Below, piece after piece: positions 1 to 34,251 of a stretch of DNA of 50,534 nt (positions are counted from its first letter, which is position 1; each line of letters starts with the position of its first letter). This stretch comes from Streptomyces globisporus (GTDB lineage Bacteria; Actinomycetota; Actinomycetes; Streptomycetales; Streptomycetaceae). The stretch covers positions 1 to 50,534 of the forward strand of contig BMTG01000025.1 in the NCBI GenBank assembly GCA_014649555.1. The letters are read 5' to 3'. The position numbers and the translations under genes were made by a program. Under the pieces are notes generated by a model, which worked only from the letters and a program-made list of their open reading frames with translations, made no database searches and was not told where the DNA came from.

Positions 1-2277
1 AGAAAGTGGGAGGGACCGTGGACCTTGGTCGGGGGACGTGGCAGCGACTGACCGCCGTGTGCCGAGCAGGTGCTCGGAGTACACCTCACCCCACTGAACC
101 GGCACCCGCCCACCACCCACCAAGGGATCGAGGACAACCAGACGAGGTTCGTCCGCCCACGCCGGCCGGCCGCGTCCGTCGGGGTACCCGTACCTCTGCC
201 AGTGCTGCTCGTGCCGCCAGCAGCGGCCCGCCCGCTGCAGCAGCAACGACAGAGGGGCAAGATCGCTGATGACGATGTCCGCGTCCAGGTCCAGGGACTG
301 TTCGACGACCTGCGTGGCCACCACGATCCGCCGGACCGGCCTCGGACCGCTCCGGCCCAGCCCCGCGGTGACTTCGGCCGTGCGCTCCTCCCTCACATCT
401 CCAGGAAATCGGGCATGCAGCAACTGAACATCACCCGCTTCCTCATGGGAGCGCCGGTCGAACTCCTCGCGGAGCTCCAGGTAAGTCTCCTGCGCGTCGC
501 CCACCGTGTTGCAGACCACAAGGGCGATGCCGCCGCCACCCGTCGCGACCGGCTCCAGCAGCCGCTTGATCACCGCAATCCGGTCCGCCACCACACCCTT
601 GCCCCCGTGGGCTGCTCGCTCGACGTCCACTCTGAGCCGCATGTTCCGCGAACGGGCCTGCTCCCGCTGACGGCCCTCGGAGATCTGCGCGCACCTGCCG
701 GTCTCGCCGTCCACGTACAGCCAGCCCGGGTACGGCGCGGGAAAAGTCTGCCGCTTCAGCACCGACGGCTTGTGGCCCGCGCCCCGCAGGTACTCCTTCA
801 CCAACCGGTCGCCGACCGAGCACGGGAGAGTCGCCGACAGCAGCACGACCGGCACACCGTAAAAGCCCAGCCAGTTCAGCAGCCGGCCCAGCAGCACTTG
901 CATGTACGGGTCGTAGGCATGCGCCTCATCCACGATGAAAGTCTTGTTCGAGAGAGCCAGCATCCGCAGAGCGTTGTGCCGAACCGGCAACACAGCCATC
1001 AGCGCCTGGTCAATCGTCCCAACCGCGAACTGCGCCAGCAGCGGCCTCTTCGCCCCACGCAACCACCGTCCCGGCCGCATATCAGCCTCCCGGCGCCGAC
1101 GCCCGGCAGGAGCCTCGTCACCGTCGCACGTCACCACCGCCTCGCCGTCCAAAACCTCGTCGGCGTAAGTGCTGCTCAGCCACGCCATGCTGTGAACCAA
1201 CGTCAGGCCTGCTCCCTCCCCGGACTGGTTCCCCAAGGCCCTGGCGACCCGGCCATGCATCTGGTCACTGGTGGCCATCGTCGGCAACAAGAACGCATAC
1301 CCGTGGGTGCCGAAAATCTTCGACAGGATCCGCTCCGCCTCCAACGCGGTCTCCGACTTCCCGTCACCAGGCGCGGCCGTCACCAACATGATGCCGCCCC
1401 TGCCCCCGGCACCCGCCGCAGCCAACAGCTCATCCATAACCGACCGCTGCAAGGGATTCGGCTCCCCCGCGATGCCGTACGCCTCGGCGAAGCCCTTGCG
1501 CTCCAGCTCCACCGGAGTCAGCCCAGCATCCCTCAACAAGCTGGCCGCGTCAGCCTGCGACCGCTGGAAGTGAGCGGGCAATGAAGGCTCAAGCGTTCGC
1601 TGGCGTTTCCGCAGGTACCCCTCCTGGCTGACCAGCCAGTCCGCGAGAATCACCACCCCCGTCACCAACACGGCAACAGGAGCCTCGAACGACCCAGGCG
1701 AGGCCGAGACCCCCAGCGCTTCGTGCACCGCCGTGGCATGCGCGACGCGCTGGTCAGCCCACACTGCGCCACCGAGGAACGTCGGGTGGGCACCGTTTCC
1801 CTGACGGTGAAAGCGGCCGTGATGACCGCCGATGATCTCCGCCACGCGTGCAGCGGCGCTCATCTCGTCGTCATCATCGAAGCCCAGAACCTTCAGGACG
1901 TCGGCTGCAGCAGTCATACCCGCCACGTCATGCCCGGCCCGTTCGGTACTCATCCGCTCGCTGCCCGCCGCCAGCTCACCGCTGAGGAACTGCGCAGCCG
2001 GCCGTGAACAGAATTGGAACCCAGACAGTTTCCCGATGTCGTGCAGGCCAGCACACAGGCCGACGAGCGCCCGAGCGCGATGCAGTTCCCCGGACAAGCC
2101 CATTCCCTCGGCTATACGCGCCCTCTGGTTCTCCGCCAAGTACACGTCCCACAAGTGAAGCGCCATCGCGGCCGCGTCGAGAAGATGCCTCACCAGCGGG
2201 TAGGGCGGCAAAGCCGGATCCAATCCACGGCACTTTCCCCACGCCGACTCATCCACCACACTCCGCCTGTGCAGCAC
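1..2277 (-). CDS. cas3: CRISPR-associated helicase/nuclease Cas3 (type I-E), 5' part, runs off left edge
   Basis: Cas3 unwinds and degrades DNA marked by Cascade. Read from GTG 2277, the frame is open for 759 codons to the window edge. Visible parts: HD nuclease with H31 and the AGLHDIGK motif (HD about residues 79-80), GGHHG near 151, Walker A APGDGKS near 302-308, DEAH box in FIVDEAHAYD near 450, SATLP near 481, then ATQVVEQSLDLD and LLQRAGR helicase motifs. The start is chosen for a GAGAGG ribosome site 6 bases upstream; GTG 2259, or an upstream GTG near 2382, are alternatives. It is divergent from the array. The remaining cas genes are presumably left of the window. The last ~25 residues before the edge do not look like typical Cas3, so truncation or a frameshift just outside cannot be excluded. 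Confidence 0.93.
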   Translation of the reverse strand, partial: MLHRRSVVDESAWGKCRGLDPALPPYPLVRHLLDAAAMALHLWDVYLAENQRARIAEGMGLSGELHRARALVGLCAGLHDIGKLSGFQFCSRPAAQFLSGELAAGSERMSTERAGHDVAGMTAAADVLKVLGFDDDDEMSAAARVAEIIGGHHGRFHRQGNGAHPTFLGGAVWADQRVAHATAVHEALGVSASPGSFEAPVAVLVTGVVILADWLVSQEGYLRKRQRTLEPSLPAHFQRSQADAASLLRDAGLTPVELERKGFAEAYGIAGEPNPLQRSVMDELLAAAGAGGRGGIMLVTAAPGDGKSETALEAERILSKIFGTHGYAFLLPTMATSDQMHGRVARALGNQSGEGAGLTLVHSMAWLSSTYADEVLDGEAVVTCDGDEAPAGRRRREADMRPGRWLRGAKRPLLAQFAVGTIDQALMAVLPVRHNALRMLALSNKTFIVDEAHAYDPYMQVLLGRLLNWLGFYGVPVVLLSATLPCSVGDRLVKEYLRGAGHKPSVLKRQTFPAPYPGWLYVDGETGRCAQISEGRQREQARSRNMRLRVDVERAAHGGKGVVADRIAVIKRLLEPVATGGGGIALVVCNTVGDAQETYLELREEFDRRSHEEAGDVQLLHARFPGDVREERTAEVTAGLGRSGPRPVRRIVVATQVVEQSLDLDADIVISDLAPLSLLLQRAGRCWRHEQHWQRYGYPDGRGRPAWADEPRLVVLDPLVGGGRVPVQWGEVYSEHLLGTRRSVAATSPDQGPRSLPLS

Positions 2278-2382
2278 TCCAGTCCTCTCCGCTCCGCCAC
2301 TCGAACCTGATCTCGCAAAGGAAGCAAGACCGCCAGCGATCGCATATAAGCACCTGGCACTGACATTGATGTCGCTCACGTC

Positions 2383-2540
2383 GGCCGTTCCCTGAGCTCT
2401 GACGGGGCACCCGTACTCGCCTTGGCGACCTTGCAAGCTGCACCTGGATAAGGTGATGACATGCGTCCGACCAAGCGTCTCTCTTCCTCAAGAATGGCAA
2501 AGAAAATGCAAAGCCCTTCTTAAGGTGCAGGTCAGGAAGT
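2383..2540 (+). promoter_or_regulatory. CRISPR leader of the main array
   Basis: This stretch lies between divergent cas3 and the first repeat and is clearly A/T-richer than its surroundings, with a run of AAAGAAAATGCAAAG near 2499-2513. The most degenerate repeat is at the far end (3395), which places the leader and newest spacers here. It probably holds the pre-crRNA promoter; no exact -10/-35 can be assigned. Confidence 0.6.
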
Positions 2541-3423
2541 GTCCTCCCCGCCGACGCGGGGGTGTTCCGCTGTTGTTCGTTCGCGCCCTGATCCTGGGCG
2601 GGTCCTCCCCGCCGACGCGGGGGTGTTCCGTACATCAACGAGATGGCGGCCGCCCTCCGAGGGTCCTCCCCGCCGACGCGGGGGTGTTCCGACCTTATTG
2701 TCGAAGACACCCACCTCGTCCTCGTCCTCCCCGCCGACGCGGGGGTGTTCCGCCCTCCACGACCTGAAGGCGGCGGGCGTCATCGTCCTCCCCGCCGACG
2801 CGGGGGTGTTCCGTCCTTCGCCTGCTTGATCCGGGCCGCGAGCGCGTCCTCCCCGCCGACGCGGGGGTGTTCCGCACTCCTACCGGCAGTGGTCGGTGCA
2901 GGCCGCGTCCTCCCCGCCGACGCGGGGGTGTTCCGGCGATGGAGATCTCCGGTGACGTGGAGGTGAAGTCCTCCCCGCCGACGCGGGGGTGTTCCGATCA
3001 TCAGCGCCGAGTTCTCCTGCGAGGTCGGGTCCTCCCCGCCGACGCGGGGGTGTTCCGCCGTCGAAGGGCACCGGGTCTACCGCAGGTACGTCCTCCCCGC
3101 CGACGCGGGGGTGTTCCGACCTGAGAGACTGGCCTTTGCACGCCGGGTAGGTCCTCCCCGCCGACGCGGGGGTGTTCCGGCCGCGGCCGGCGGCTACGCG
3201 CACGGCGCCCCGTCCTCCCCGCCGACGCGGGGGTGTTCCGGCCGCGGCCGGCGGCTACGCGCACGGCGCCCCGTCCTCCCCGCCGACGCGGGGGTGTTCC
3301 GCAGCTCCGGCAGTGCCGCGTCACCGGCCGGTCGTCCTCCCCGCCGACGCGGGGGTGTGCCGACCGCGCGAGGTTTCGTGACGACGCCGGGACCGGTGTC
3401 CCCGCCGCCGCGGGGGTGTTCCG
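2541..3423 (+). CRISPR. Type I-E CRISPR array, 15 repeats / 14 spacers
   Basis: Repeats are 29 bp, beginning GTCCTCCCCGCCGACGCGGG and ending GGTGTTCCG, with a constant 61-bp period (starts 2541, 2602, 2663, 2724, 2785, 2846, 2907, 2968, 3029, 3090, 3151, 3212, 3273, 3334, 3395), so every spacer is 32 bp. The partly palindromic CCCCG...CGGGG core and the lengths are typical of I-E and match the neighbouring cas3. By analogy with the E. coli repeat the transcribed strand is plus. The repeat at 3334 has one change near its end; the repeat at 3395 has four changes, marking the trailer end. Spacers at 3180-3211 and 3241-3272 are identical. Confidence 0.98.
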
Positions 3424-4273: not shown

Positions 4274-6838
4274 TCATGCGATCACCGGGCCAGCCGTGTC
4301 GGTGTCCAGCGGTCGGGTGGCGAGCTCGTGCAGCCGGCCCGTCCACGGCGCGACCGGGACCTGTTCGGTCCGTGCGGCGGTCTGCTCGCGCAGCTGCTCC
4401 AGCCGCGTCGTGAGCAGGTACTCGGCGGTGCGCTCCCGGGCGGTGTCGGCGGCCTTCGTCGCGGCGGCGATGGCGTCCGCGCCGTTCGGGTTGTGGCGGA
4501 ACCAGCGGCGGTTCTGCTCGGTGCGGAACGCCCGGCGGGCTTCCGCTTCGGCTTCCGCGGTCCGTCCGAGCCTCTCCAGGGCGTTGCTGCGGTAGTCCGA
4601 CAGCGCCGCTTCCACGGTCTGGAGCGCGGCGAAGGCCAGCACCGATGCCGCACCGACCGGGTCCGTGTCCAGCTCGCCCGGCTCCACCGATTCCAGGAAC
4701 TCCCGCTGGGTGTGCTTGATGTCGGCCTCCAGCGACGCCCGGACACCGGCGATGACGGCGTCGATGTCGTCCCGGTCATCCAGCACGGCCGCCCAGGTCG
4801 CGGCGAGCAGACCGGTCTCCACCGTCATGGTCTCGGTCCGGCGCCGGTAGCCGCACGCCTCGCACAGCCCGGCCGCCCGGCCGCGCCCGCAGTCCTCGCA
4901 CGCCAGCGCCTGGCGGACCGCCTCGGCGGCGGCCGCGACCCGCCGCTCGTGTTCCGCCTGCTCAGCGGCCTCCGCACGGGCCGCCTCGCGTCGGGCCCGC
5001 TCCACACGGACCTGCTCCTGGTCCCGGGCGAAATTCTCCGCCTGGGTGGCGACCCGTTCGCGCAGCCGCTTCTCAAGGATGCGGCGGCGTTCGCCACCGG
5101 CGAGGCCGGGCAGCTCCCGGTCGATGTCCGCGCGCATCTGCGCCCGGCGGGCCCGGTGGATGTGGACCACGTTGGCGCAGCTCTCGCAGCTCTCCCCGGT
5201 GTCCAGCCGGATCCCGTCGTCGCAGCGCCGGTCCGGGCACGAGGGCCGCCGGACCAGCCCACGGCCCCTCAGCCACCCGAACGGTTTGGCGACCATCGCC
5301 TCGCCGCCGGTCTCCGTCAGACGGCGGGTAAGTCGGTCGGCCAGCAGCTGCGGCGCACTCTCCGGTCCCACGTCCAGGCCGGTCAGCTGCGCCACCTCCG
5401 CTTTCGCGGCGGCCTCCACCTGGTCCTGCTGCCAACCCGACAGCCGCCCCCAGAGCGGGGACACCGGCCGCAGGGCCACCCGCAGATGAGAATCGGCAGG
5501 CAGGGCCACCCGCTTCTGCTGCTGCGCCTTTTCCCACCCCCCGGCGCGCAGTTGGCCACCGTCGTCAGCCCCGTCAGTACGCTGCTCAACTCGCTGATCG
5601 ACTGGGGGCTTCTTCGGCTTGCCCCCGCGGAGCGGGCCGCCGTCCTCGCGCACGCACGCGCGCTCCGGCAGATCACCGAACCCACCACGGCCTTCGCCGG
5701 CAAAGCCACCAGCAAGCGAGAGATCAACTACGGGAGTACCCAGGTGAGGGTGGTCAGTGTGAAGGGCTGCCGCACCGTCGGGGTCTGAAACTCCCGTCAC
5801 ATCCGTCACCGGGATGCCGCTGACCTGCAGGTCCGTCTCCGCGCGCGGCGTCTCAACAGGCCCTGCCGCAACGTCGGGGTCTGAAAAATCGGGCTCGGGG
5901 GCCTGCGCACGGTCCTCCCGGATGTCTCCGGCGACCGTACAGCCGTGCGCGGCGGCGACCGAGAGCACCATCAGCCGCGACCGGTTTGCCAGGCCAGAGC
6001 TTGTTCGCAGACGCACCCGCAGCACCAGCTCCCGGTCCTCCAGGCGCTCCAGCACCCGCTCCCCCGCCGACGCCGTGCAGCCCAGCAGCCGGGCCACCGT
6101 TGCCGCCGCGCGGCCGCGCCTAGAGTCCACGGTCCCGCCGATCTGCCGCACCTGCCCGGTCTCCCGCGCCTCCAGCACCAGCAACAGCAGCGCGAGGCGG
6201 TCCGTCGCCGCACCCCGACCGGTACGCGTACCGATCAGCCCGGCCGGAGTGACCCGGCCGTCGCGGTGCTTCCAACCCGGCGCCATCACGGCCTCCAACA
6301 GCCGCTGCAGCGTCGCGTACTCCTTCTTCGTCAGGTTCAGCGGGTGCCCGACCACGTCCTGCGCCGCCCACAGAGGCAGCACCTTGCACTCAAGGCCGGT
6401 GCTTTCGCGAAACTCGCCCTCCGACGCATCGACGGAGACCACGCCGGACCGCTTCAGCGCTGGGACCACCTCGGATGCCGTGTACGACGCGGATGCCCCG
6501 ATCCACCGGCCCAGCTCGGAGGTGCGGATCGCCACTACACCGGTCTCCCACGGCGTCCGCGACGCCAGCACCAACACCGCCAGGCGCACCGCGTCCGACG
6601 CGCCGTCCAGGCCGTCCGCGTCCAGCAGCGCCCGCACCGCACCACCCAGCCGGGCACGCGCGTCCCGGCTGAGCGACAGCGGATGACCTGCCGCCCGCTT
6701 GGGGACCGGCCCGGCCTGCGCTGGGACGGACCGCAGCCGACGCCGCGAGCCTCCGCCCGTCACGTCGTCGACGGAGTTGTCGACGACCTCCCAGACCTCG
6801 TGGTCCAGCACGGCGGCCGACGCCGCGCCCGCGCTCAC
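4274..6838 (-). CDS. Large helix-turn-helix / zinc-finger protein of mobile elements (possible replication or regulatory protein)
   Basis: 854 residues from GTG 6838. Residues ~60-310 look like two winged-helix modules (LSLSRDARARLGGAVRALL..., then PLNLTKKEYATLQRLLEAV... and a VARLLGCTASAGERVLERL recognition-helix-like segment). Residues ~310-460 are low-complexity linker. Around 530-560 a Cys cluster (SCPDRRC...SCESC) is followed by a long Arg/Glu/Ala coiled coil (~565-645) and a second cluster CEDCGRGRAAGLCEACG (~646-662). Such architecture suits a DNA-binding protein; placement at the left end of the element suggests plasmid replication or its control, but no Rep catalytic motif was seen, so function is inference. 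Confidence 0.75.
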   Translation of the reverse strand: MSAGAASAAVLDHEVWEVVDNSVDDVTGGGSRRRLRSVPAQAGPVPKRAAGHPLSLSRDARARLGGAVRALLDADGLDGASDAVRLAVLVLASRTPWETGVVAIRTSELGRWIGASASYTASEVVPALKRSGVVSVDASEGEFRESTGLECKVLPLWAAQDVVGHPLNLTKKEYATLQRLLEAVMAPGWKHRDGRVTPAGLIGTRTGRGAATDRLALLLLVLEARETGQVRQIGGTVDSRRGRAAATVARLLGCTASAGERVLERLEDRELVLRVRLRTSSGLANRSRLMVLSVAAAHGCTVAGDIREDRAQAPEPDFSDPDVAAGPVETPRAETDLQVSGIPVTDVTGVSDPDGAAALHTDHPHLGTPVVDLSLAGGFAGEGRGGFGDLPERACVREDGGPLRGGKPKKPPVDQRVEQRTDGADDGGQLRAGGWEKAQQQKRVALPADSHLRVALRPVSPLWGRLSGWQQDQVEAAAKAEVAQLTGLDVGPESAPQLLADRLTRRLTETGGEAMVAKPFGWLRGRGLVRRPSCPDRRCDDGIRLDTGESCESCANVVHIHRARRAQMRADIDRELPGLAGGERRRILEKRLRERVATQAENFARDQEQVRVERARREAARAEAAEQAEHERRVAAAAEAVRQALACEDCGRGRAAGLCEACGYRRRTETMTVETGLLAATWAAVLDDRDDIDAVIAGVRASLEADIKHTQREFLESVEPGELDTDPVGAASVLAFAALQTVEAALSDYRSNALERLGRTAEAEAEARRAFRTEQNRRWFRHNPNGADAIAAATKAADTARERTAEYLLTTRLEQLREQTAARTEQVPVAPWTGRLHELATRPLDTDTAGPVIA

Positions 6839-12953: not shown

Positions 12954-12974
12954 CGGCTCCCCCGCGACGAACGA

Positions 12975-13021
12975 CCACGGCCCCGGCCACCCCGATGAAC
13001 TCGGGGTGGCCGGGGCCGTGG
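12975..13021 (+). terminator. Perfect 21-bp hairpin terminator
   Basis: Arms 12975-12995 and 13001-13021 are perfectly complementary (CCACGGCCCCGGCC...) with a 5-base loop TGAAC, 21 bp after the stop of the 76-aa gene. Confidence 0.85.
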
Positions 13022-13062
13022 CTGCTCGTACGGCAGCCCCGGGGCCACCGGCCCCGGAAAGC

Positions 13063-27507: not shown

Positions 27508-27806
27508 TGCCCCGCACCCGCCGCAAGCGCCCGCACAAGGTGGCGCGGGTGCCGCGCAGCAACGCGCTGCTGCCCGAGTACGACCGGGGCGCTGTCCCTG
27601 AGGGCCTCGTCACGCGGCGTGCTCTGCGGGTGATGGGGCTGAGCCCCGGCGACAACACCGGCCCGGTCGCGATCCTGCGCTGTTCGCTGCTGGAAGACGA
27701 GAACGACCTCCTGGAGCTGCTGGAGGAACTGCGCCCCACCGGCGGGCACGCCGTTCACCGCGGCGACACCGGCGGCCCGTACTGCGCCAGCACCCCGACC
27801 CGCTGA
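27507..27806 (+). CDS. Basic hypothetical protein, 99 aa
   Basis: ATG 27507 overlaps the stop of the basic peptide (TGATG). MPRTRRKRPHKVARVPRSNA then LVTRRALRVMGLSPGDNTGP, VAILRCSLLEDENDLLELLE and a Gly-rich tail ending GDTGGPYCASTPTR. The N-terminus is strongly basic, the middle is acidic and helical. The last ~15 codons are in DNA that is repeated at 32741, where it is read in a different frame. Family not recognised. Confidence 0.65.
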   Translation: MPRTRRKRPHKVARVPRSNALLPEYDRGAVPEGLVTRRALRVMGLSPGDNTGPVAILRCSLLEDENDLLELLEELRPTGGHAVHRGDTGGPYCASTPTR

Positions 27807-28122
27807 GCTGATGCGAACCCCGCCCCGCTCGCTGATGGCGGCCGCTGCGGTGCCTGTGGCGCTCGCCGCGGCCGCCGCCGTCCTCAAAGCTGGCCACTGG
27901 AAGCTGTATGCCGACCGGCACCGCATCCACCTCACGCCCGTTGCGCGCCGCTCCTGCCCCGACTGCCGGGGCGCGGGCGGCTGGTGGGCCGGCGGTCCGT
28001 TCCCGGAGATGGAGGCGTGCGGTTGCTGGTCCGAGCGGCGCGAGCTCCACATCCGGCTCCTGCCCGTACCGGCCCGGTTCGACGAACCGCCGTTCTGAAG
28101 CGACCTCTGCCCCGGCCACACC
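27760..28122 (+). repeat. Duplicated segment, copy 1
   Basis: Colinear without indels with 32741-33103, from GCGGCGACACCGGCGGCCCG through the membrane zinc protein to the GCCCCGGCCACACCG part of its terminator. Differences are scattered and mainly third-position. Copy 1 leads into the CRISPR mini-array; copy 2 leads into other DNA, so the junction marks a rearrangement. Confidence 0.85.
27811..28098 (+). CDS. Membrane-anchored zinc-motif protein, copy 1 (95 aa)
   Basis: ATG 27811. An N-terminal hydrophobic helix (SLMAAAAVPVALAAAAAVLK, ~8-27) anchors the protein; residues ~55-75 hold RSCPDCRGAGGWWAGGPFPE and MEACGCWSERRELHIRL, a CxxC...CxC zinc-like site similar to DnaJ-type knuckles. Copy 2 at 32729-33079 is closely similar in the same motif. 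It closes the element's gene series and is followed by a perfect hairpin. Function unknown. Confidence 0.78.
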   Translation: MRTPPRSLMAAAAVPVALAAAAAVLKAGHWKLYADRHRIHLTPVARRSCPDCRGAGGWWAGGPFPEMEACGCWSERRELHIRLLPVPARFDEPPF

Positions 28123-28132
28123 GGCCGGGGCA
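28108..28132 (+). terminator. Hairpin terminator abutting the CRISPR mini-array
   Basis: TGCCCCGGCC (28108-28117) and GGCCGGGGCA (28123-28132) pair perfectly around 5 bases, 10 bp after the stop codon. The first CRISPR repeat begins at the very next base, 28133. Confidence 0.85.
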
Positions 28133-28222
28133 GTCCTCCCCGCCGACGCGGGGGTGTTCCGACGGAGAACAGCACGGCGCCCGCGGTGATCGCGTCCTCC
28201 CCGCCGACGCGGGGGTGTTCCG
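28133..28222 (+). CRISPR. Type I-E mini-array: two perfect repeats, one 32-bp spacer
   Basis: Repeats at 28133-28161 and 28194-28222 match the consensus of the main array at all 29 positions and are in the same orientation, with a single spacer at 28162-28193. There is no leader-like A/T-rich sequence; the left neighbour is the hairpin of the preceding gene. No cas gene is near. The spacer differs from all spacers of the main array. Confidence 0.93.
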
Positions 28223-28400
28223 AACCCGCTGGCGACTGCCCGTCGGGCCGCTCCGCATCGACCGGCTGCTCGATGAGGCAAACGAAACTGCCGACCCCGT
28301 GCACCTGATGCGCGTCTTCGGGATCTCCGACACGACCGCACTGAAGTACGTCAGAGCAGCCCACCCCCACCGATTCGGGCCAGAGCCCACCCAAGCCTGA
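28223..28400 (+). pseudogene. C-terminal fragment of a large tyrosine integrase-type protein
   Basis: In frame from the repeat, the DNA reads LPVGPLRIDRLLDEANETAD, PVHLMRVFGISDTTALKYVR and ends AAHPHRFGPEPTQA with TGA 28398. DRLLDEA..TADPVHLMR-FGIS..TA-KYV..AHP is the typical end of large Streptomyces phage-type integrases. The rest of the gene is absent; homology starts within about 30 bp of the last CRISPR repeat. A relic of a recombined integration module. Confidence 0.65.
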
Positions 28401-28548
28401 TCGGCAGTCCCGAACCCGTGGTACAGCCGAGATACGCACCAAAGGGGCGATGAGTTGATCTTGATGCGTGGCGTAGCCGTTGACCGCCTGGTTCGGATGC
28501 CACCTCCGCGCGGTAGATGGCATCCAACTGGCCGGGCGCCGGAACCAG

Positions 28549-29268
28549 CTACGCGCTCTGGGGCAGCAGACCGGCGTCGATGACCTCAGCGATTAGGGTG
28601 GCGCCGCGGCTGTTCTGGTGGATGTGGTCGGTCGTGAGCACGAGACCTCGCCGCCGCGAGATCGTGTCGAGGCTGCGGCGCAGCACTGCGTGCTGGACGA
28701 GGACGCCGACGGCCGCTGCGGGCGTCACCTCCCGGTATGAAATCGGCGGCGGGTCCGCTTGGCGCAGTTCCTCGATCTGGCGTTCGTGGAGCGGAAGGTA
28801 GGCCACCTCGCTGCTGGCGGCGACCTCGGCGATCATCCGGCTGTACGCCTGCGATGCCTGTGCCGCTGCTCCGTCGAGTTGTTGGCCGAGTACCGGTAGC
28901 GACAGCAGACCGATCGTCGCGTCGGTCTCCGCTCGCAGCCGTGCGACGACGGCTCCCAGGCACTGTTGGAACCAGCCGGCCGACGGGCGATCGGGGAGCT
29001 GTTTGCGCTTCATGGCTTGCTCGACGGGGTAACCGGCAAGGCTCGCTCGGGCGTCGTTGGTCCCGATCAACACGGTGATCACATCGGGTGGGTTCGTGAC
29101 GACAGTATCGAGGCGCTGCAAGAGGTTGTAGGCGAAGTCGCCGTTGGCGCCGAAACGGGCAAGCTGCACGTCACCGGGAGGGCGGCGTCGTCCGAGAAGA
29201 TCCAGGTAGTCGACGCTGAACTGCGCGCGGGTGAGGCTGTCGCCGAGGCACGCGATGCGTGTCGTCAC
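28549..29268 (-). CDS. SGNH/GDSL hydrolase, 239 aa
   Basis: GTG 29268 with GAGGAAG. Block I is IACLGDSLTRA (catalytic Ser), the block III Gly-x-Asn-Asp is IGTNDARAS, and the final block is DHIHQNSRG, holding catalytic Asp and His. The fold is the flavodoxin-like SGNH hydrolase used by esterases, lipases and acyl-carrier thioesterases. No signal peptide, so probably cytoplasmic. Its start overlaps the stop of the cupin gene by 4 bp (GTGA), so the two are coupled. Confidence 0.9.
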   Translation of the reverse strand: MTTRIACLGDSLTRAQFSVDYLDLLGRRRPPGDVQLARFGANGDFAYNLLQRLDTVVTNPPDVITVLIGTNDARASLAGYPVEQAMKRKQLPDRPSAGWFQQCLGAVVARLRAETDATIGLLSLPVLGQQLDGAAAQASQAYSRMIAEVAASSEVAYLPLHERQIEELRQADPPPISYREVTPAAAVGVLVQHAVLRRSLDTISRRRGLVLTTDHIHQNSRGATLIAEVIDAGLLPQSA

Positions 29269-29735
29269 GGCGCTTCCTCCGGGCTGGGCGTGACGACGCG
29301 TTCGGTCGGGCGGGTGTCGGTCCGAGGACGGTGGTCGGTGCCGAGGGTCGCAGTGATGGCCAGGATGGACGTCGGCCCCTCCATGTCGACCACGTGCCAT
29401 ACCCCGGCCGGGTTGATGGTGGCCTCGCCCGGCCCGAGCAGAACGCGGTCGGGGACCCCGTCCACGTCGCGGGTGACCGTCACGGACCCGCTGAGGCAAA
29501 CGACCAGTTCGTCGCCTGCAGGGTGGCTCTCCCAATGGTCGCCGAGCCCGTCACCGTCGAAGATCATCACCATCCGGCCCTCGGCGCCGTCTGCCGCGAC
29601 CGCGGCGCTGTAGGCCTGGAGCACCTCCGGGTCCCAGGTGAAGCCCTCGACGGGTTTCGCTCTCGATCCCAGTCCGAGGTGCACGGGGGTGGTCCGCAGG
29701 TCCATGGCATTGCGTTCATGGTTGACGAGTCTCAT
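29265..29735 (-). CDS. Cupin-domain protein, 156 aa
   Basis: Residues ~60-130 form a single cupin: GDHWESHPAGDELVVCLSGS and ...LLGPGEATINPAGVWHVVDM, with metal-binding His/Glu in H-W-E-x-H-x4-D-E and the second His in WHVVD. Start ATG 29735 is the longest plausible; ATG 29705 is an alternative, and neither has a strong ribosome site. Coupled to the SGNH hydrolase and near an AraC regulator, it may bind or isomerise a small metabolite; function is not fixed. Confidence 0.85.
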   Translation of the reverse strand: MRLVNHERNAMDLRTTPVHLGLGSRAKPVEGFTWDPEVLQAYSAAVAADGAEGRMVMIFDGDGLGDHWESHPAGDELVVCLSGSVTVTRDVDGVPDRVLLGPGEATINPAGVWHVVDMEGPTSILAITATLGTDHRPRTDTRPTERVVTPSPEEAP

Positions 29736-29817
29736 GCCGACGATCGTCCACGACAGCGATCGGGCGGTCTTGAAGAAAAGGGAAGAGAAGCCGACACGAC
29801 GGGCAGACGGTTGGCGG

Positions 29818-30654
29818 CTACCCGGCTCCGAGGAGAACTTCGCTGCGACGCCAGGCCGTCGGCGATCGGCCCGTGAACTCGCGCCAGTCCCGAACGAGAT
29901 GGGCCTGGTCGGCGTAGCCAGAGACGGTTGCCACATCGCCCCACGGGAGTGGGTCCTGCGCCGCCGCCAGTTCGTGCGCGTGCTCGAAGCGCAAGACTCG
30001 GGCGAAGGCCTTCGGCGGCAGGCCCACCTCACCGCGAAACCGCTCGGTGAGGTACCGACGGCTCCAGCCGAGTTCCGCGGCGACCGCACCAACCTGGACG
30101 CAACCCCGCGCGGCGACGAGGCGGCGCCACGCCTCGGCTACCTCGGGGCGCACCCAGCGCACATGGTCGCCGCAGGCGCCACGGCCGACAGCTCGGAGGA
30201 GCAATTCGTCCAGCGCGGTGAACCGCGCCGCCCATGTTGTCGCCGATCGGAGCCGGTCGACCAGCTCGACGGCAAGCGCTCCGAGAAGCTCGTCAAGTGG
30301 GACCAGTCGGTGGGCGAGCTCGGCAGCGGGCATGCCGTAGATGGCCCGGGCCCCGAGCGGTGTCAGCGATACCTGAACACCTTGCTGGCGTCCGTCGTGG
30401 TGAATCGCGACGGACCGGCACATCAGACCGCCGGCCACGCTGCCGAATCGGGTGACCGGTGACCCGTCGTCAACGCCCGCCGCCACCTCCAAAGGATCTG
30501 ACAGGCTGATCACCGCAGTGAGCGCGCGGCTCGGCGGGCCGCAGTGCACCCCCGCCGGGAGCCCGCGGAGGTCGAAGCCGACATACGAGTCGACGTACTG
30601 CCGCAAGACGGGCGCCGGACGTGCACCGATCCCGGTGGCCGTGTGGTCCTCCAT
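29818..30654 (-). CDS. AraC-family transcriptional regulator, 278 aa
   Basis: Start ATG 30654 (MEDHTATGIGARPAPVLRQY) chosen over longer options that read into hydrophobic non-family sequence. The C-terminal ~95 residues are the double helix-turn-helix: VQVGAVAAELGWSRRYLTER and FRGEVGLPPKAFARVLRFEH, then GDVATVSGYADQAHLVRDWR and EFTGRSPTAWRR. The N-terminal part is the usual variable sensor (DUF6597-like). It ends 82 bp before the cupin start and reads the same way, so it likely regulates the cupin/SGNH pair. Confidence 0.92.
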   Translation of the reverse strand: MEDHTATGIGARPAPVLRQYVDSYVGFDLRGLPAGVHCGPPSRALTAVISLSDPLEVAAGVDDGSPVTRFGSVAGGLMCRSVAIHHDGRQQGVQVSLTPLGARAIYGMPAAELAHRLVPLDELLGALAVELVDRLRSATTWAARFTALDELLLRAVGRGACGDHVRWVRPEVAEAWRRLVAARGCVQVGAVAAELGWSRRYLTERFRGEVGLPPKAFARVLRFEHAHELAAAQDPLPWGDVATVSGYADQAHLVRDWREFTGRSPTAWRRSEVLLGAG

Positions 30655-30803
30655 TTTCGTCAGTGTACGAGCCGCCCAGCCCAGGAAGATCACCATCCAA
30701 CGACTGATCACCGCCATTTGCGGCTGGTGTCGCGGTTCTTACCGGCACCCCGTCACACAGCGCATGTCCGTTGGCCGTGGCTATACGAGAACAGGGCCTA
30801 GAC

Positions 30804-31557
30804 ATGCCGGGCAAGGTCATACCGATGTTCCCCAAGGCCGAACCCGTCGGCTACTCCGCCAGCGGGCGCCACGTCCCCTTCCGGTTCCCCGCGACTCCAC
30901 CCCGAGAATCCGCGAACCCGTCGACTTCGCGGTGGGAGGAACTGCGCCAGGCGCCGCAGGCCGGATGGCACCTCATGGCCAACTGGATCAAGGCCCTGCT
31001 GGTTCTCATCGGCGTATGTGCGGTCATCATCCTGCTCGACACCGCGGGCGACATCTTCGACGCCACCGTGAGCCGCATGGCCGACTCGGTTCCCACCACC
31101 CGGGCGGGCACCAGCGCCGCCGGCAAGCTGTGGGGCGTGGTCGACAACCCGATCCGCTACTACATCTCCCAGCACACCGCTGGCCTCAGCGCCAGTGCCT
31201 CCGCCGTCTACACCTTCTGGCAGCTCGTGGGCTGGTTCGGCCTGATCGGCGGGTTCATCGGCACCACCGGCGCCCGCATCACCTGGACCTGCTGGGGCGC
31301 GTCAAGCGTCCTCGCCGTGTGGTCCGCGGCCCCAGCCGACGGGCGCACCATCGCCACCGGCATCGCCGTCCTCCGCCTGGACCATCGCCTCCACTCTCGC
31401 CCTGCGCGGCCTCAGCCTGCGCCCGGTGGTCAACAACTTCATCCCGCCCGCCCCGACCTTCCAGCCCCAGATCGAGATCCGGCCCGAGATCCACATCCCC
31501 GCCCCGGCCCCCGCGCCCGACGACACACCCGACAACGTCCACCAGTTCCAGCGCTGA
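30804..31557 (+). pseudogene. Frameshifted second copy of the Spd-type membrane protein
   Basis: From ATG 30804 the frame encodes a paralogue of the 252-aa protein at 25316 (WHLMANWIKALLVLIGVCAV, QHTAGLSASASAVYTFWQLV). An extra C at about 31373 shifts the frame after TIATGIAVL. Deleting it restores AWTIASTLALRGLSLRPVVN and a Pro-rich tail to TGA 31555, of the same length and end type as the paralogue. The uncorrected frame runs into unrelated sequence to 31889. Either a decayed copy or a base-call error. Confidence 0.85.
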
Positions 31558-31573
31558 CCCGGTCGCTCCACCT

Positions 31574-31615
31574 GGTCCTCGCCCCGCCCTTCCACTGCGG
31601 GGCGGGGCGAGGACC
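31574..31615 (+). terminator. 16-bp hairpin after the Spd copy
   Basis: GGTCCTCGCCCCGCCC (31574-31589) pairs perfectly with 31600-31615 around a 10-base loop, followed by the CAGGCCGACCGGCC repeat also seen at 26120-26136. The duplicated terminator supports common origin of both segments. Confidence 0.85.
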
Positions 31616-31707
31616 GGACAGGCCGACCGGCCGCCTCGCACCACGCCCGCCGACGAAAGCCAGCGGGCGCGGTGCGTGCTGTCCACCGACACCAGGAGGA
31701 ACCGCTC

Positions 31708-31790
31708 GTGCTCATCCCCCGCCCGCGTCGCCGGATCGGCCGTCCCCGCCCGCAGCGACCGGCCCCCGCTACCCGATCCCCGGGCGGCGA
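31708..31790 (+). pseudogene. Truncated copy of the basic-peptide gene
   Basis: GTG 31708 behind AGGAGGA starts VLIPRPRRRIGRPRPQRPAP, matching the peptide at 27400, then diverges around 31765-31790. Beyond this the frame runs into the DUF6000 gene region and stops at 31980, so the natural end is lost. The break marks the left junction of the DUF6000 insertion. Confidence 0.65.
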
Positions 31791-31826
31791 TCACGGCCGA
31801 GAGAGATCACCGGAAGGTGGGGCCGG

Positions 31827-32444
31827 TCATCGCGCCTCAGCGCATTCGTCGATGAACGCGCAGAGCCGACGAATGAGGCTCAAGGATGAGAGTGTGGGGT
31901 CCGAGTCGCCCTGCATGTGCGGTGCATCCTGGAGCCACTGCTGCCACAGGCCCCCCGGTTGCCGGAAGCGGTCGGCTTGACCACCTCCGAGGTTCAGGCC
32001 GATGAACTGGAGCGCGCCCATGACGACGGTCTGGTCGTATCCGAGGTCCGGACGACGGAGGTATCGATCCAGGTAGGCGGCGAGCAGATCGGCGTCGCGT
32101 GCTGTTCCAAAACTGGCCAGGGCCACGCTGTAGGCCAGCCCGGCGCAGCAGACTTCGCTGGCCAGCAGGAGTTTCCCGAGGCGCTCACGGAACTCGGTCC
32201 GGCGGGAGACAGCTATGAGCCAAGCCGCAGTTCTCCGCTCTCGCCAGCCGCCTTCAAGGAGCTTGGCGATCTCATCGGCGGTGATAAGTCCTGCGTCCTC
32301 ATGGAGATCTCGCATGAATCGGTCGCACTCAGGACTGTGCATGCGGAGCAAGCCGCCGCCGAGCTTCAGGTAGCGCCGCTCGGGCGTGACGTACCGGTGA
32401 ACCACGGCTAGCAACTCGAGATGGTCACGAGGATCGCGTATCAC
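31827..32444 (-). CDS. DUF6000 family protein, 205 aa
   Basis: GTG 32444, chosen for AAGGAAAG upstream and the family-like start VIRDPRDHLELLAVVHRYVT. Family blocks follow: PERRYLKLGGGLLRM, ADEIAKLLEGGWRERRTAAW, LLLASEVCCAGLAYSVALAS, AAYLDRYLRRPDLGYDQTVV and GGLWQQW. Helical repeats suggest an ARM/HEAT-like scaffold; no enzymatic motif. DUF6000 genes are common singletons in Streptomyces, sometimes as immunity-like proteins. Here it sits on the opposite strand inside the duplicated element tail, an apparent insertion. Confidence 0.85.
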   Translation of the reverse strand: MIRDPRDHLELLAVVHRYVTPERRYLKLGGGLLRMHSPECDRFMRDLHEDAGLITADEIAKLLEGGWRERRTAAWLIAVSRRTEFRERLGKLLLASEVCCAGLAYSVALASFGTARDADLLAAYLDRYLRRPDLGYDQTVVMGALQFIGLNLGGGQADRFRQPGGLWQQWLQDAPHMQGDSDPTLSSLSLIRRLCAFIDECAEAR

Positions 32445-32569
32445 GCGATCGATCTTTCCTTGTTGATGCAGAACGGAGCCAGCCCGTTTCCTGCCCTGCT
32501 TGTCCGAGGACCGGCGATGGCCCACGCGGCTTCCGCTGCGCCTTGGCACCGGAGTACCGCAGCTACGGA

Positions 32570-32700
32570 ACAAGTGCACTCCGCCGACACCCTTACGCAC
32601 CGTCGGCTGCTGCGACCCGTGCGCCCAGGGCTACGAGCCCACCCCCGGCACCTACGTCACTGCCACCGCCACGCCGGTCACGCACCGACTGGCCTCTTGA
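32570..32700 (+). pseudogene. 3' fragment of a Cys-containing element gene
   Basis: The frame ending TGA 32698 reads CTPPTPLRTVGCCDPCAQGY then EPTPGTYVTATATPVTHRLA, with strong G/C third-position bias and a CC..C cluster. Upstream of about 32560 coding character is lost, giving the right junction of the DUF6000 insertion. The following gene has its ribosome site just after this stop. Confidence 0.45.
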
Positions 32701-32728
32701 ACGCCTCGACCGAAGGAGCGATCACACC

Positions 32729-33079
32729 GTGACAGACACAGCGGCGACACCGGCGGCCCGTACTGCGCCAGCACCCCGACCCGCTGAGCCGGTGCGAACC
32801 CTGCCCCGCTCACTGATGGCCGCCGCTGCGGTGACCGTGGCGCTTGCCGCGGTCGCCGCCCTCCTCAAGGCCAGCCGCTGGCAGCTGTACGCCGACCGGC
32901 ACCGTATCCATCTCACGCCGTATCCCCGCCGCTCCTGCCCCGACTGCCGGGGCGAGGGCGTCTGGTGGGCTGGTGGGCCGTTCCCGGAGATGGAGGCGTG
33001 CGGCTGCTGGTCCGAGCGGCGCGAACTCCATATCCGGCTCCTGCCCGTCCCGGCCTGGCCCGACGAACCGCCGTTCTGA
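32729..33079 (+). CDS. Membrane-anchored zinc-motif protein, copy 2 with new N-terminus (116 aa)
   Basis: GTG 32729 follows GAAGGAG by 10 bases. From SLMAAAAVTVALAAVAALLK on it matches copy 1 (27811), including RRSCPDCRGEGVWWAGGPFP and MEACGCWSERRELHIRL. The first ~21 residues (MTDTAATPAARTAPAPRPAE) come from DNA that in copy 1 encodes the C-terminus of the 99-aa protein in another frame. A shorter start at GTG 32792 would equal the start of copy 1. Confidence 0.72.
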   Translation: MTDTAATPAARTAPAPRPAEPVRTLPRSLMAAAAVTVALAAVAALLKASRWQLYADRHRIHLTPYPRRSCPDCRGEGVWWAGGPFPEMEACGCWSERRELHIRLLPVPAWPDEPPF

Positions 33080-33103
33080 GGCGACCTCCGCCCCGGCCAC
33101 ACC
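32741..33103 (+). repeat. Duplicated segment, copy 2
   Basis: Colinear with 27760-28122 without indels. The hairpin after this copy is less perfect (GCCCCGGCCACACCGACTGGGGC), and no CRISPR repeat follows. Confidence 0.85.
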
Positions 33104-33204
33104 GACTGGGGCGGAAGCCGCGCGCGGGGAAGACCGCAGCATCGGCAAAGAGCCGGCCGCCCCGCACCCCTTCACCCGCAAGTCGAGATCAGGAGAACCC
33201 CAGC

Positions 33205-33517
33205 ATGCCCCGTCTGCCCCGTCTGCCCCTCGTCACCGAGCGCCTGGCCCTCTTCGCCACCCTCCTGGCGACCTTCGGCGAGCTGCACCCCGCCTGCGAC
33301 CACTGGGTCCAGGGCTCGAAGACCGCGTCGCGGAAGCGGCTGTACGGCAAGGACCTGGTCCCACGCCGACGGCACCCCCGCCACACCGGACTCGACCCGC
33401 CCGACCGTGACCACCAGCACCCTCGGCAGGCGCGCGGTCGCCTGCCACGTCGCTTCTCTCGGGCTTGAAGCCGAGTGGACGCGACGGGCGCCACGTTTTC
33501 CCAGATCAGTGGCATGA
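33205..33517 (+). pseudogene. Frameshifted small element gene
   Basis: ATG 33205 behind AGGAG encodes LVTERLALFATLLATFGELH, PACDHWVQGSKTASRKRLYG, a block seen in small proteins of Streptomyces elements. An extra C at about 33359-33361 breaks the frame after YGKDLV; without it the protein continues HADGTPATPDSTRPTVTTST, LGRRAVACHVASLGLEAEW to TGA 33515. The last ~15 residues look unrelated, suggesting a junction near 33470. Confidence 0.65.
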
Positions 33518-33594
33518 CTCATTCGGTGCCGTGTGCGCGACAGGTGTCGTGGATACAGGCTCGTTCCGATGCCAGACCGTGGCGCGTTGGCTGT

Positions 33595-34251
33595 TCAGCG
33601 CTGGTGCCAGACCAGCGTGTAGCGCCAAAACAGTCGCCGGCGCAGCCGTGCGCCGGGTAGTTCATGGCGAGCCCTGCGCACGATGTCTGCGAAATCCATG
33701 GTCGCCGGTCGGGTCGGGGAAGTCATCGAGGTCGGTCGCGGTGACTTGCGGCCCTTGTTCTTGATCCATGCCATGGCGACATTCGACGGAATGGCGACGG
33801 CATCGATCAGGTAGTCGCTCGGAGACTGCGGGCGGTAGAGACCGACGACGACCAGGGCCCCGCCGGGCGCCAGGTGCTGCCGAAAGCGGGTGAGGGCCTC
33901 GCTGAACGGCAGGTGATGGACGGTGGCGACACATGTGATCACGTCGTAGGGGCCTGGAGGTATCTCGTTCAGTGCGTCTCCGACGGTGAAGGTCACCGGG
34001 GCTGCCGGGGCTGTGAGCTCCCGCGCGCGAGCGACGATGTCGGCGTCCACGTCGACGCCGTGCACCACTCCTGCCCGTGCGGCCAGAAGCCTGGCAAGGT
34101 CACCGCTGCCCGATCCGACGTCCAGGGCGCTGTTGAAGCGTCTCGGGAGCTGGCGCAAGATCCACTGGTGGTAGTGGGCGTTGTGGTCCCAGGGATGGGT
34201 GGCATGAAACTGTTCAAGTGCTCGAAGGATGCGGGGCAGCAGTGTCGTCAT
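33595..34251 (-). CDS. Class I SAM-dependent methyltransferase, 218 aa
   Basis: ATG 34251. Motif I is ALDVGSGSGDLARLLAARAG (~43-60), then the acidic loop HGVDVDADIVARA, VGDALNEIPPGPYDVITCVA (motif IV region) and LAPGGALVVVGLYRP (motif VI/VII). The C-terminal part LRRRLFWRYTLVW is basic and hydrophobic. This is the common small-molecule methyltransferase fold (Methyltransf_25 type). No biosynthetic partners are adjacent, so the substrate is open. It stands alone, leftward, next to a recombinase relic. Confidence 0.9.
   Translation of the reverse strand: MTTLLPRILRALEQFHATHPWDHNAHYHQWILRQLPRRFNSALDVGSGSGDLARLLAARAGVVHGVDVDADIVARARELTAPAAPVTFTVGDALNEIPPGPYDVITCVATVHHLPFSEALTRFRQHLAPGGALVVVGLYRPQSPSDYLIDAVAIPSNVAMAWIKNKGRKSPRPTSMTSPTRPATMDFADIVRRARHELPGARLRRRLFWRYTLVWHQR

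What the first reader, a model, noticed from the sequence alone, without database searches (positions are those of the whole stretch)
28108..28400. Cas-less I-E mini-array at the tail of a conjugative element
Seen: two full-consensus 29-bp repeats around one 32-bp spacer start on the base after the terminator of the last element gene; no leader; integrase C-terminus follows. The repeats equal those of the array next to cas3 25 kb away, so resident Cascade could process it. Known: plasmid- and phage-borne mini-arrays can use host Cas proteins for inter-element competition. Inferred: the element carries a hitchhiking guide against a rival, or the element landed by recombination between CRISPR repeats.
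Basis: partly seen in the sequence, partly recalled or inferred. Interest (0 to 1): 0.75.

Follow-up and report, generated by a model that had tools for sequence, protein, structure and literature searches.

The report
Stray CRISPR shard on Streptomyces plasmid
A two-repeat, one-spacer piece of a type I-E CRISPR array sits at a recombination scar on a Streptomyces plasmid and still holds a well-formed guide against a rival conjugative plasmid, but no working CRISPR effector was found in this genome to use it, so it looks like a dormant remnant of a kind already known.

Summary
Two perfect 29-bp type I-E repeats (28133-28161, 28194-28222) flank a 32-bp spacer, directly after the hairpin behind the last gene of a conjugation module, with no leader. 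The spacer looks like a genuine anti-plasmid memory: 31 of 32 bases match a DUF2637 gene on a 14-kb traA/traB plasmid of S. anulatus, with an AAG PAM. Three S. globisporus linear plasmids share the junction: one has the identical mini-array, two have a single repeat. After the second repeat come 23-26 bases without known homology, then the 3' end of an integrase gene; these bases are probably a cut-off second spacer. Best explanation: an array fragment broken off by illegitimate recombination on a rearranging plasmid, now dormant. It could work only where another element supplies Cascade; complete systems with the identical repeat exist on related linear plasmids. Scattered and Cas-less arrays on Streptomyces plasmids are already described.

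The parts
28133..28161 (+). type I-E CRISPR repeat 1 (perfect consensus)
28162..28193 (+). 32-nt spacer; 31/32 match with 5' AAG in a DUF2637 gene of NZ_CP109526.1
28194..28222 (+). type I-E CRISPR repeat 2 (perfect consensus)
28223..28248 (+). 23-26 nt without homology to the integrase; probably the truncated next spacer (inference)
28246..28411 (+). 3' fragment of an integrase gene, 97% identical to the gene on plasmid p1 of Streptomyces sp. WAC00288
28107..28133 (+). GC-rich hairpin after the tail gene, no T-tract, abutting repeat 1
27684..28131 (+). tail gene region of the conjugation element, copy 1 (92.9% to the plasmid of Streptomyces sp. S8); homology stops at the repeat
32737..33112 (+). 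second copy of the tail gene region, which continues into the downstream DNA seen in the S8 plasmid
28469..30674 (-). GDSL esterase, cupin and AraC-type regulator cargo, found in other settings on other plasmids and genomes
2541..3423 (+). main CRISPR array, 15 repeats with the same consensus, the last one degenerate
60..2436 (-). cas3 open frame, truncated at its 3' end (the relative's annotated start aligns to residue 54 of this frame)
1..59 (.). unrelated plasmid DNA joined to the broken cas3 (100% to pTFSG1, just upstream of a xylanase gene)

Best explanation
The mini-array is a fragment of an ordinary type I-E array: repeat, spacer, repeat and the first 23-26 nt of the next spacer. It was broken off by illegitimate recombination and is now embedded between the end of a conjugation module and an integrase fragment, on what is probably an S. 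globisporus-type linear plasmid. Its spacer was acquired in the normal way (AAG PAM) from a traA/traB conjugative plasmid. In this genome it is a dormant memory: it has no leader, no promoter was found and no Cascade was found. A sister lineage has since lost one repeat-spacer unit, probably by repeat-to-repeat deletion. It could be read only in a cell where another element brings a complete I-E system with the same repeat. Shown: the sequence, the protospacer and PAM, the absence of cas hits in the draft genome, the junction variants. Inferred: the shard origin, the linear-plasmid location, the direction of the repeat change, the dormancy.
For: Exact repeats and spacer. Protospacer 31/32 with AAG in NZ_CP109526.1. 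No Cas1, Cas7e, Cas6e or Cse1 hit in the genome, with 43 of 120 relatives positive for Cas7e. cas3 broken at 59/60 by DNA 100% identical to pTFSG1. The same junction on three S. globisporus plasmids, the only records that cover at least 80% of the junction: NZ_CP109060 with the identical mini-array, NZ_CP029362 and CP109147 with one repeat. Right edge 23-26 nt past repeat 2. The flanks are pieces found separately elsewhere. CRISPR decay elsewhere: CP109147 keeps two long arrays (57 and 12 repeats at up to 3 mismatches) with no annotated cas gene in the 46-76 kb stretch, and the own genome has a decayed array on contig C6.
Against: The 23-26 nt after repeat 2 match no protospacer and no full spacer in what was searched, so the second spacer is unproved; filler DNA would look the same. 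The left junction falls on the first base or two of the repeat, which random breakage would seldom do; short G-rich microhomology could explain it. The donor array was not found: no other plasmid record shown holds this spacer in an array. The assembly is a draft of 58 contigs, so a missing cas contig cannot be excluded. In the 14 named control genomes the Cas7e, Cas6e and Cse1 models ring in only 2, E. coli not among them, and the wider control in relatives was run for Cas7e only.
Confidence: 0.72

Rival explanations
1. A hitchhiking guide: the plasmid carries the mini-array as a weapon, transcribed by read-through from the conjugation module and processed in trans by a Cascade supplied by another plasmid or host, so that rival traA/traB plasmids are excluded.
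For: Spacer with AAG PAM and only one mismatch, at position 9, against a conjugative plasmid. Complete I-E systems with the identical repeat on related linear plasmids, e.g. NZ_CP108282.1. The homologous site in the element's own DUF2637 gene has 17 mismatches and no AAG. The upstream genes of the S8 relative run in the same direction.
Against: No Cascade found in the own draft genome. A strong hairpin just upstream and no promoter found. Two of the three sister plasmids lack the spacer. The identity of the mini-array in NZ_CP109060 says little, because the whole 6.5-kb block differs at only 10 sites.
Confidence: 0.15
2. A solitary repeat was the original state (as in pTFSG1 and NBC_01745), and Cas1-Cas2 of a then-resident system inserted the spacer there without a leader (ectopic acquisition).
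For: Single-repeat versions exist at the same junction; the left edge is at the repeat boundary, where Cas1-Cas2 cuts (recalled); the PAM is canonical.
Against: No leader. The two single-repeat plasmids also share a deletion of about 134 bp around 27828-27952, so they look derived; no outgroup settles it. Loss of a repeat-spacer unit is the simpler change.
Confidence: 0.08
3. The repeat acts as an RNA anti-CRISPR (Racr, solitary repeat unit) that occupies the Cas proteins of a host or rival.
For: pTFSG1 carries this one repeat and no other copy within 3 mismatches; Racr candidates are reported in viruses and plasmids (PMC10651486, passages).
Against: No promoter found in 27700-28420 with a sigma-70 consensus scan; the window version is a full repeat-spacer-repeat unit with a protospacer, which would make a normal crRNA.
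Confidence: 0.04
4. A CreTA-like addiction module in which the spacer directs Cascade to a nearby promoter.
For: One or two ectopic repeats outside an array (start of the abstract of PMC9458426).
Against: The repeats are perfect, not degenerate (degeneration is in that paper's title); the best match of the spacer within about 2 kb has 12 mismatches.
Confidence: 0.01

Closest known systems
Orphan (Cas-less) CRISPR arrays on plasmids (PMC9071438; passages)
   Same: Plasmid-borne, no cas nearby, short, spacer against another plasmid; that paper offers both decay and use of host Cas in trans as explanations.
   Different: This one has a single spacer, below that survey's cut-off (two-repeat arrays were excluded from most of its analyses), and its broken edges can be mapped.
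Scattered arrays of Streptomyces linear plasmid pSHK1, and the Cas-less array of SCP1 (as cited in the review PMC12231136; passages; Guo et al. 2011 itself not read)
   Same: CRISPR arrays scattered over a Streptomyces linear plasmid away from its I-E cas genes (pSHK1), or with no cas genes at all (SCP1).
   Different: Here no cas genes were found in the genome beyond a broken cas3, and a protospacer with PAM is identified.
Virus-borne CRISPR mini-arrays (PMC6858448, search listing and start of abstract; review PMC11656645, passages)
   Same: One or two spacers, repeats identical to a fuller CRISPR system, target a competing mobile element.
   Different: No Cascade found in this host, no evidence of expression, and the target plasmid showed no close kinship with the carrier beyond a distant DUF2637 gene.
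Type I-E system of S. avermitilis (PMC4762764; abstract and passages)
   Same: Type I-E, AAG PAM, array transcribed away from a cas3-side leader in the main locus.
   Different: That system is complete and active; this one has lost its effector.

Membership tests
Type I-E CRISPR array | 29-bp repeat with a short GC stem, 32-33-bp spacers | tested here: met
Type I-E CRISPR array | spacer derived from a mobile element with AAG PAM | tested here: met
   31/32 with AAG in NZ_CP109526.1
Type I-E CRISPR array | leader at the 5' end | tested here: not met
   tail gene and hairpin abut repeat 1
Orphan / Cas-less CRISPR array | array without cas genes beside it | tested here: met
   no cas gene annotated in the sister block of NZ_CP109060 nor among the window ORFs chosen for the Pfam scans
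MGE mini-array using host Cas in trans | repeats identical to those of a CRISPR system in the same host | tested here: inconclusive
   identical to the main array on the same contig, but that locus has only a broken cas3
MGE mini-array using host Cas in trans | functional Cascade available in the host | tested here: not met
   no Cas7e, Cas6e or Cse1 hit in the draft genome; Cas7e control 43 of 120 relatives
MGE mini-array using host Cas in trans | transcribed and processed into crRNA | not testable with these tools
   needs small-RNA sequencing; no sigma-70-like site found
RNA anti-CRISPR (solitary repeat unit) | single repeat behind a promoter | tested here: not met
   two repeats and a spacer here; no promoter found
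CreTA module | degenerate repeats, spacer matching a nearby toxin promoter | tested here: not met
   (defining features partly recalled)

The most novel reading that the evidence does not exclude
The mini-array is a portable, single-shot guide kept on S. globisporus linear plasmids. It has no Cas of its own and becomes active only when the plasmid shares a cell with another linear plasmid carrying a complete I-E system with the identical repeat; then it removes traA/traB conjugative rivals at their DUF2637 gene while sparing its own diverged copy.
Probability: 0.12. Interest if true: 0.6.

Novelty: new member of a known kind. Interest (0 to 1): 0.3.

Why it matters
It is an example, mapped at its junctions, of how a plasmid CRISPR system falls apart: effector genes are lost, arrays remain or break into fragments, and one fragment still carries a target with the right PAM. 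A Streptomyces spacer with an identified target is unusual: the review PMC12231136 cites a study in which 99.5% of 2104 spacers had no phage or plasmid match (passage). Whether such fragments are scrap or guides usable in trans is open, and this junction with its natural single-repeat versions makes it testable.

Tried and rejected
Protospacer in phages: 63 records matched at E up to 10, 30 were listed; the best covers 27 of 32 nt at 88.9%, not accepted. IMG/VR and GTDB contigs: 0 exact matches to one degenerate form of the spacer (the tool may leave out the own genome and near ones). Other Streptomyces: 0 of 391 genomes besides the own one with the spacer at up to 3 mismatches; 0 of 391 with the 26-nt partial spacer at up to 2. 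Self-targeting: no second site at up to 3 mismatches in the own genome. Weaker plasmid sites for the spacer: 5 mismatches in DUF2637 genes of two plasmids, preceded by AAA and AGG, and 6 mismatches in a third plasmid, preceded by ATC; not counted as protospacers. The second I-E system on NZ_CP109060 was considered as a provider in trans; its repeat differs (compared by eye). Main-array spacers as a control: 3 of 13 distinct spacers were searched in plasmids; 1 of 3 (2570-2601, nearest the leader) matches 32/32 with AAG on S. globisporus NZ_CP108668.1; the other two gave no convincing match in the rows shown (6 of 34 and 6 of 47 records). One search listed 30 of 1430 records; the rest were not inspected. 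and one search lists were likewise cut (20 of 278, 40 of 80). Racr and CreTA were considered and disfavoured (see rivals). Literature searches; I make no claim of absence from print.

Full report
OBSERVATION. The window is C25:1-50534 of an 8.25-Mb draft genome in 58 contigs. Two perfect 29-bp repeats at 28133-28161 and 28194-28222 enclose a 32-nt spacer. The repeat equals that of the array at 2541-3423. With up to 3 mismatches it occurs in the whole genome at 18 places: 14 in the main array, 2 here and 2 on contig C6, where a decayed array of four repeats (1-5 mismatches) lies; the reversed-pattern control gives 0. Upstream, homology to the conjugation region of the Streptomyces sp. S8 plasmid NZ_CP015446 (pieces between 18009 and 28131, 91-93%) stops at 28131, where the repeat begins. 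The S8 plasmid continues there into other DNA, which in the window follows a second copy of the tail gene region at 32737. There is no leader; a strong hairpin without T-tract abuts the repeat.

SPACER. Against 72,556 plasmid records the spacer has two full-length matches with at most one mismatch among the 30 best rows shown of 1430: the same mini-array in NZ_CP109060.1, and 31/32 in NZ_CP109526.1, a 14,020-bp circular plasmid of S. anulatus NBC_01414 with traA and traB. The match lies in a DUF2637 gene, and the three bases 5' of it are AAG, the PAM reported for S. avermitilis I-E (PMC4762764, abstract). The mismatch is at spacer position 9, outside the seed (seed rule recalled). On a 70% GC background the expected number of matches this good in the collection is about 2e-6, and about 1e-8 with AAG. 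DUF2637 genes on two other plasmids match with 5 mismatches and without AAG. The aligned site in the element's own DUF2637 gene has 17 mismatches and no AAG. No phage match was accepted, and the spacer was not found in 391 other Streptomyces genomes at up to 3 mismatches, so the target is rare in what was searched.

CAS GENES. The cas3 gene on the minus strand is open to the contig edge, but its homology to intact cas3 genes stops at position 60, about 200 residues short. Bases 1-59 are 100% identical to DNA just upstream of a xylanase gene on S. globisporus pTFSG1, so the break appears to be real and not only a contig end. The genome gave no match to Cas1, Cas7e, Cas6e or Cse1. The Cas7e model rings in 43 of 120 genomes of the relatives set, the own genome being one of the misses. 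Of the 14 named control genomes the three Cascade models ring in only 2, E. coli not among them; I did not run a relatives control for Cas1, Cas6e or Cse1. I conclude that no Cascade is detectable here. Complete I-E systems with the identical repeat exist on related linear plasmids, for example NZ_CP108282.1.

JUNCTION IN RELATIVES. Three S. globisporus linear plasmids carry the same block. NZ_CP109060.1 (NBC_01004) is identical over the array; the 6,473-bp block 27688-34160 differs at 10 sites, none of them in the repeats or spacer, so this identity is no sign of selection. NZ_CP029362.1 (pTFSG1) and CP109147.1 (NBC_01745) have one repeat at the same place and lack one repeat-spacer unit. On pTFSG1 this is the only copy of the repeat within 3 mismatches. 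Both share a deletion of about 134 bp nearby, so I read them as derived. After the second repeat come 23-26 nt that match neither the integrase genes of two relatives nor any array or protospacer in what was searched; integrase homology begins at 28246-28249. A truncated second spacer is the simplest reading, not a proved one. Further right, the cargo (GDSL esterase, cupin, AraC-type regulator) is found in other settings.

MECHANISM. The most likely account is breakage of a normal array on a rearranging plasmid. The fragment kept one full unit and part of the next, and was joined to the end of a conjugation module on one side and to an integrase remnant on the other. The same plasmid family shows decay elsewhere: NBC_01745 keeps two head-to-head arrays (57 and 12 repeats at up to 3 mismatches) with no annotated cas gene between them, and its array shares its next-to-last spacer position with the window's array. 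Two spacers with AAG protospacers on Streptomyces plasmids (the mini-array spacer and main-array spacer 2570-2601), out of four spacers searched, suggest that the former system took memories from plasmids. Whether the fragment is ever used in trans cannot be decided from sequence.

KNOWN OR NEW. Orphan arrays on plasmids are described, with decay and use in trans both proposed (PMC9071438, passages). For Streptomyces, five arrays distributed on pSHK1 and a Cas-less array on SCP1 are cited in PMC12231136 (passages). This is a new member of that kind, with two useful additions: an identified target with PAM, and a natural series of junction variants.

Noticed in passing
window 1-2436: cas3 is broken at 59/60 and joined to DNA that on pTFSG1 lies just upstream of an endo-1,4-beta-xylanase gene.
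   Followed up: yes
window 2570-2601: The leader-proximal spacer of the main array matches 32/32 with AAG a XRE-family regulator gene on the S. globisporus plasmid NZ_CP108668.1.
   Followed up: yes
window 3180-3211 and 3241-3272: The main array holds two adjacent identical spacers.
   Followed up: no
L027:11136-11287 (CP109147.1): In NBC_01745 a reverse and a forward array stand head to head, about one spacer length apart, where a relative has the cas operon between its two arrays; no cas gene is annotated there, and an IS5-family transposase gene lies within the reverse array.
   Followed up: partly
L021:6552-6768 (G000 contig C6): A decayed four-repeat array with a near-identical repeat lies on a 434-kb contig of the same genome.
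   Followed up: partly
L028:18312-28436 (NZ_CP109060.1): NBC_01004's plasmid carries a separate I-E system with no annotated cas1 or cas2 in the stretch seen, a different repeat, repeats on both sides of the cas genes and cas3 on the opposite strand.
   Followed up: partly
window 4274-6838: An 854-aa open frame without Pfam or PADLOC match lies beyond the main array and has a relative at 77-82% DNA identity on NZ_CP109060.1.
   Followed up: no
window 12967-13029: A 29-bp inverted repeat with 5 nt between the arms, 90% complementary.
   Followed up: no
window 27679-27688: The S8-like conjugation region and the block shared with NZ_CP109060.1 meet here; about 670 bp of the S8 plasmid are missing at this point.
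   Followed up: no
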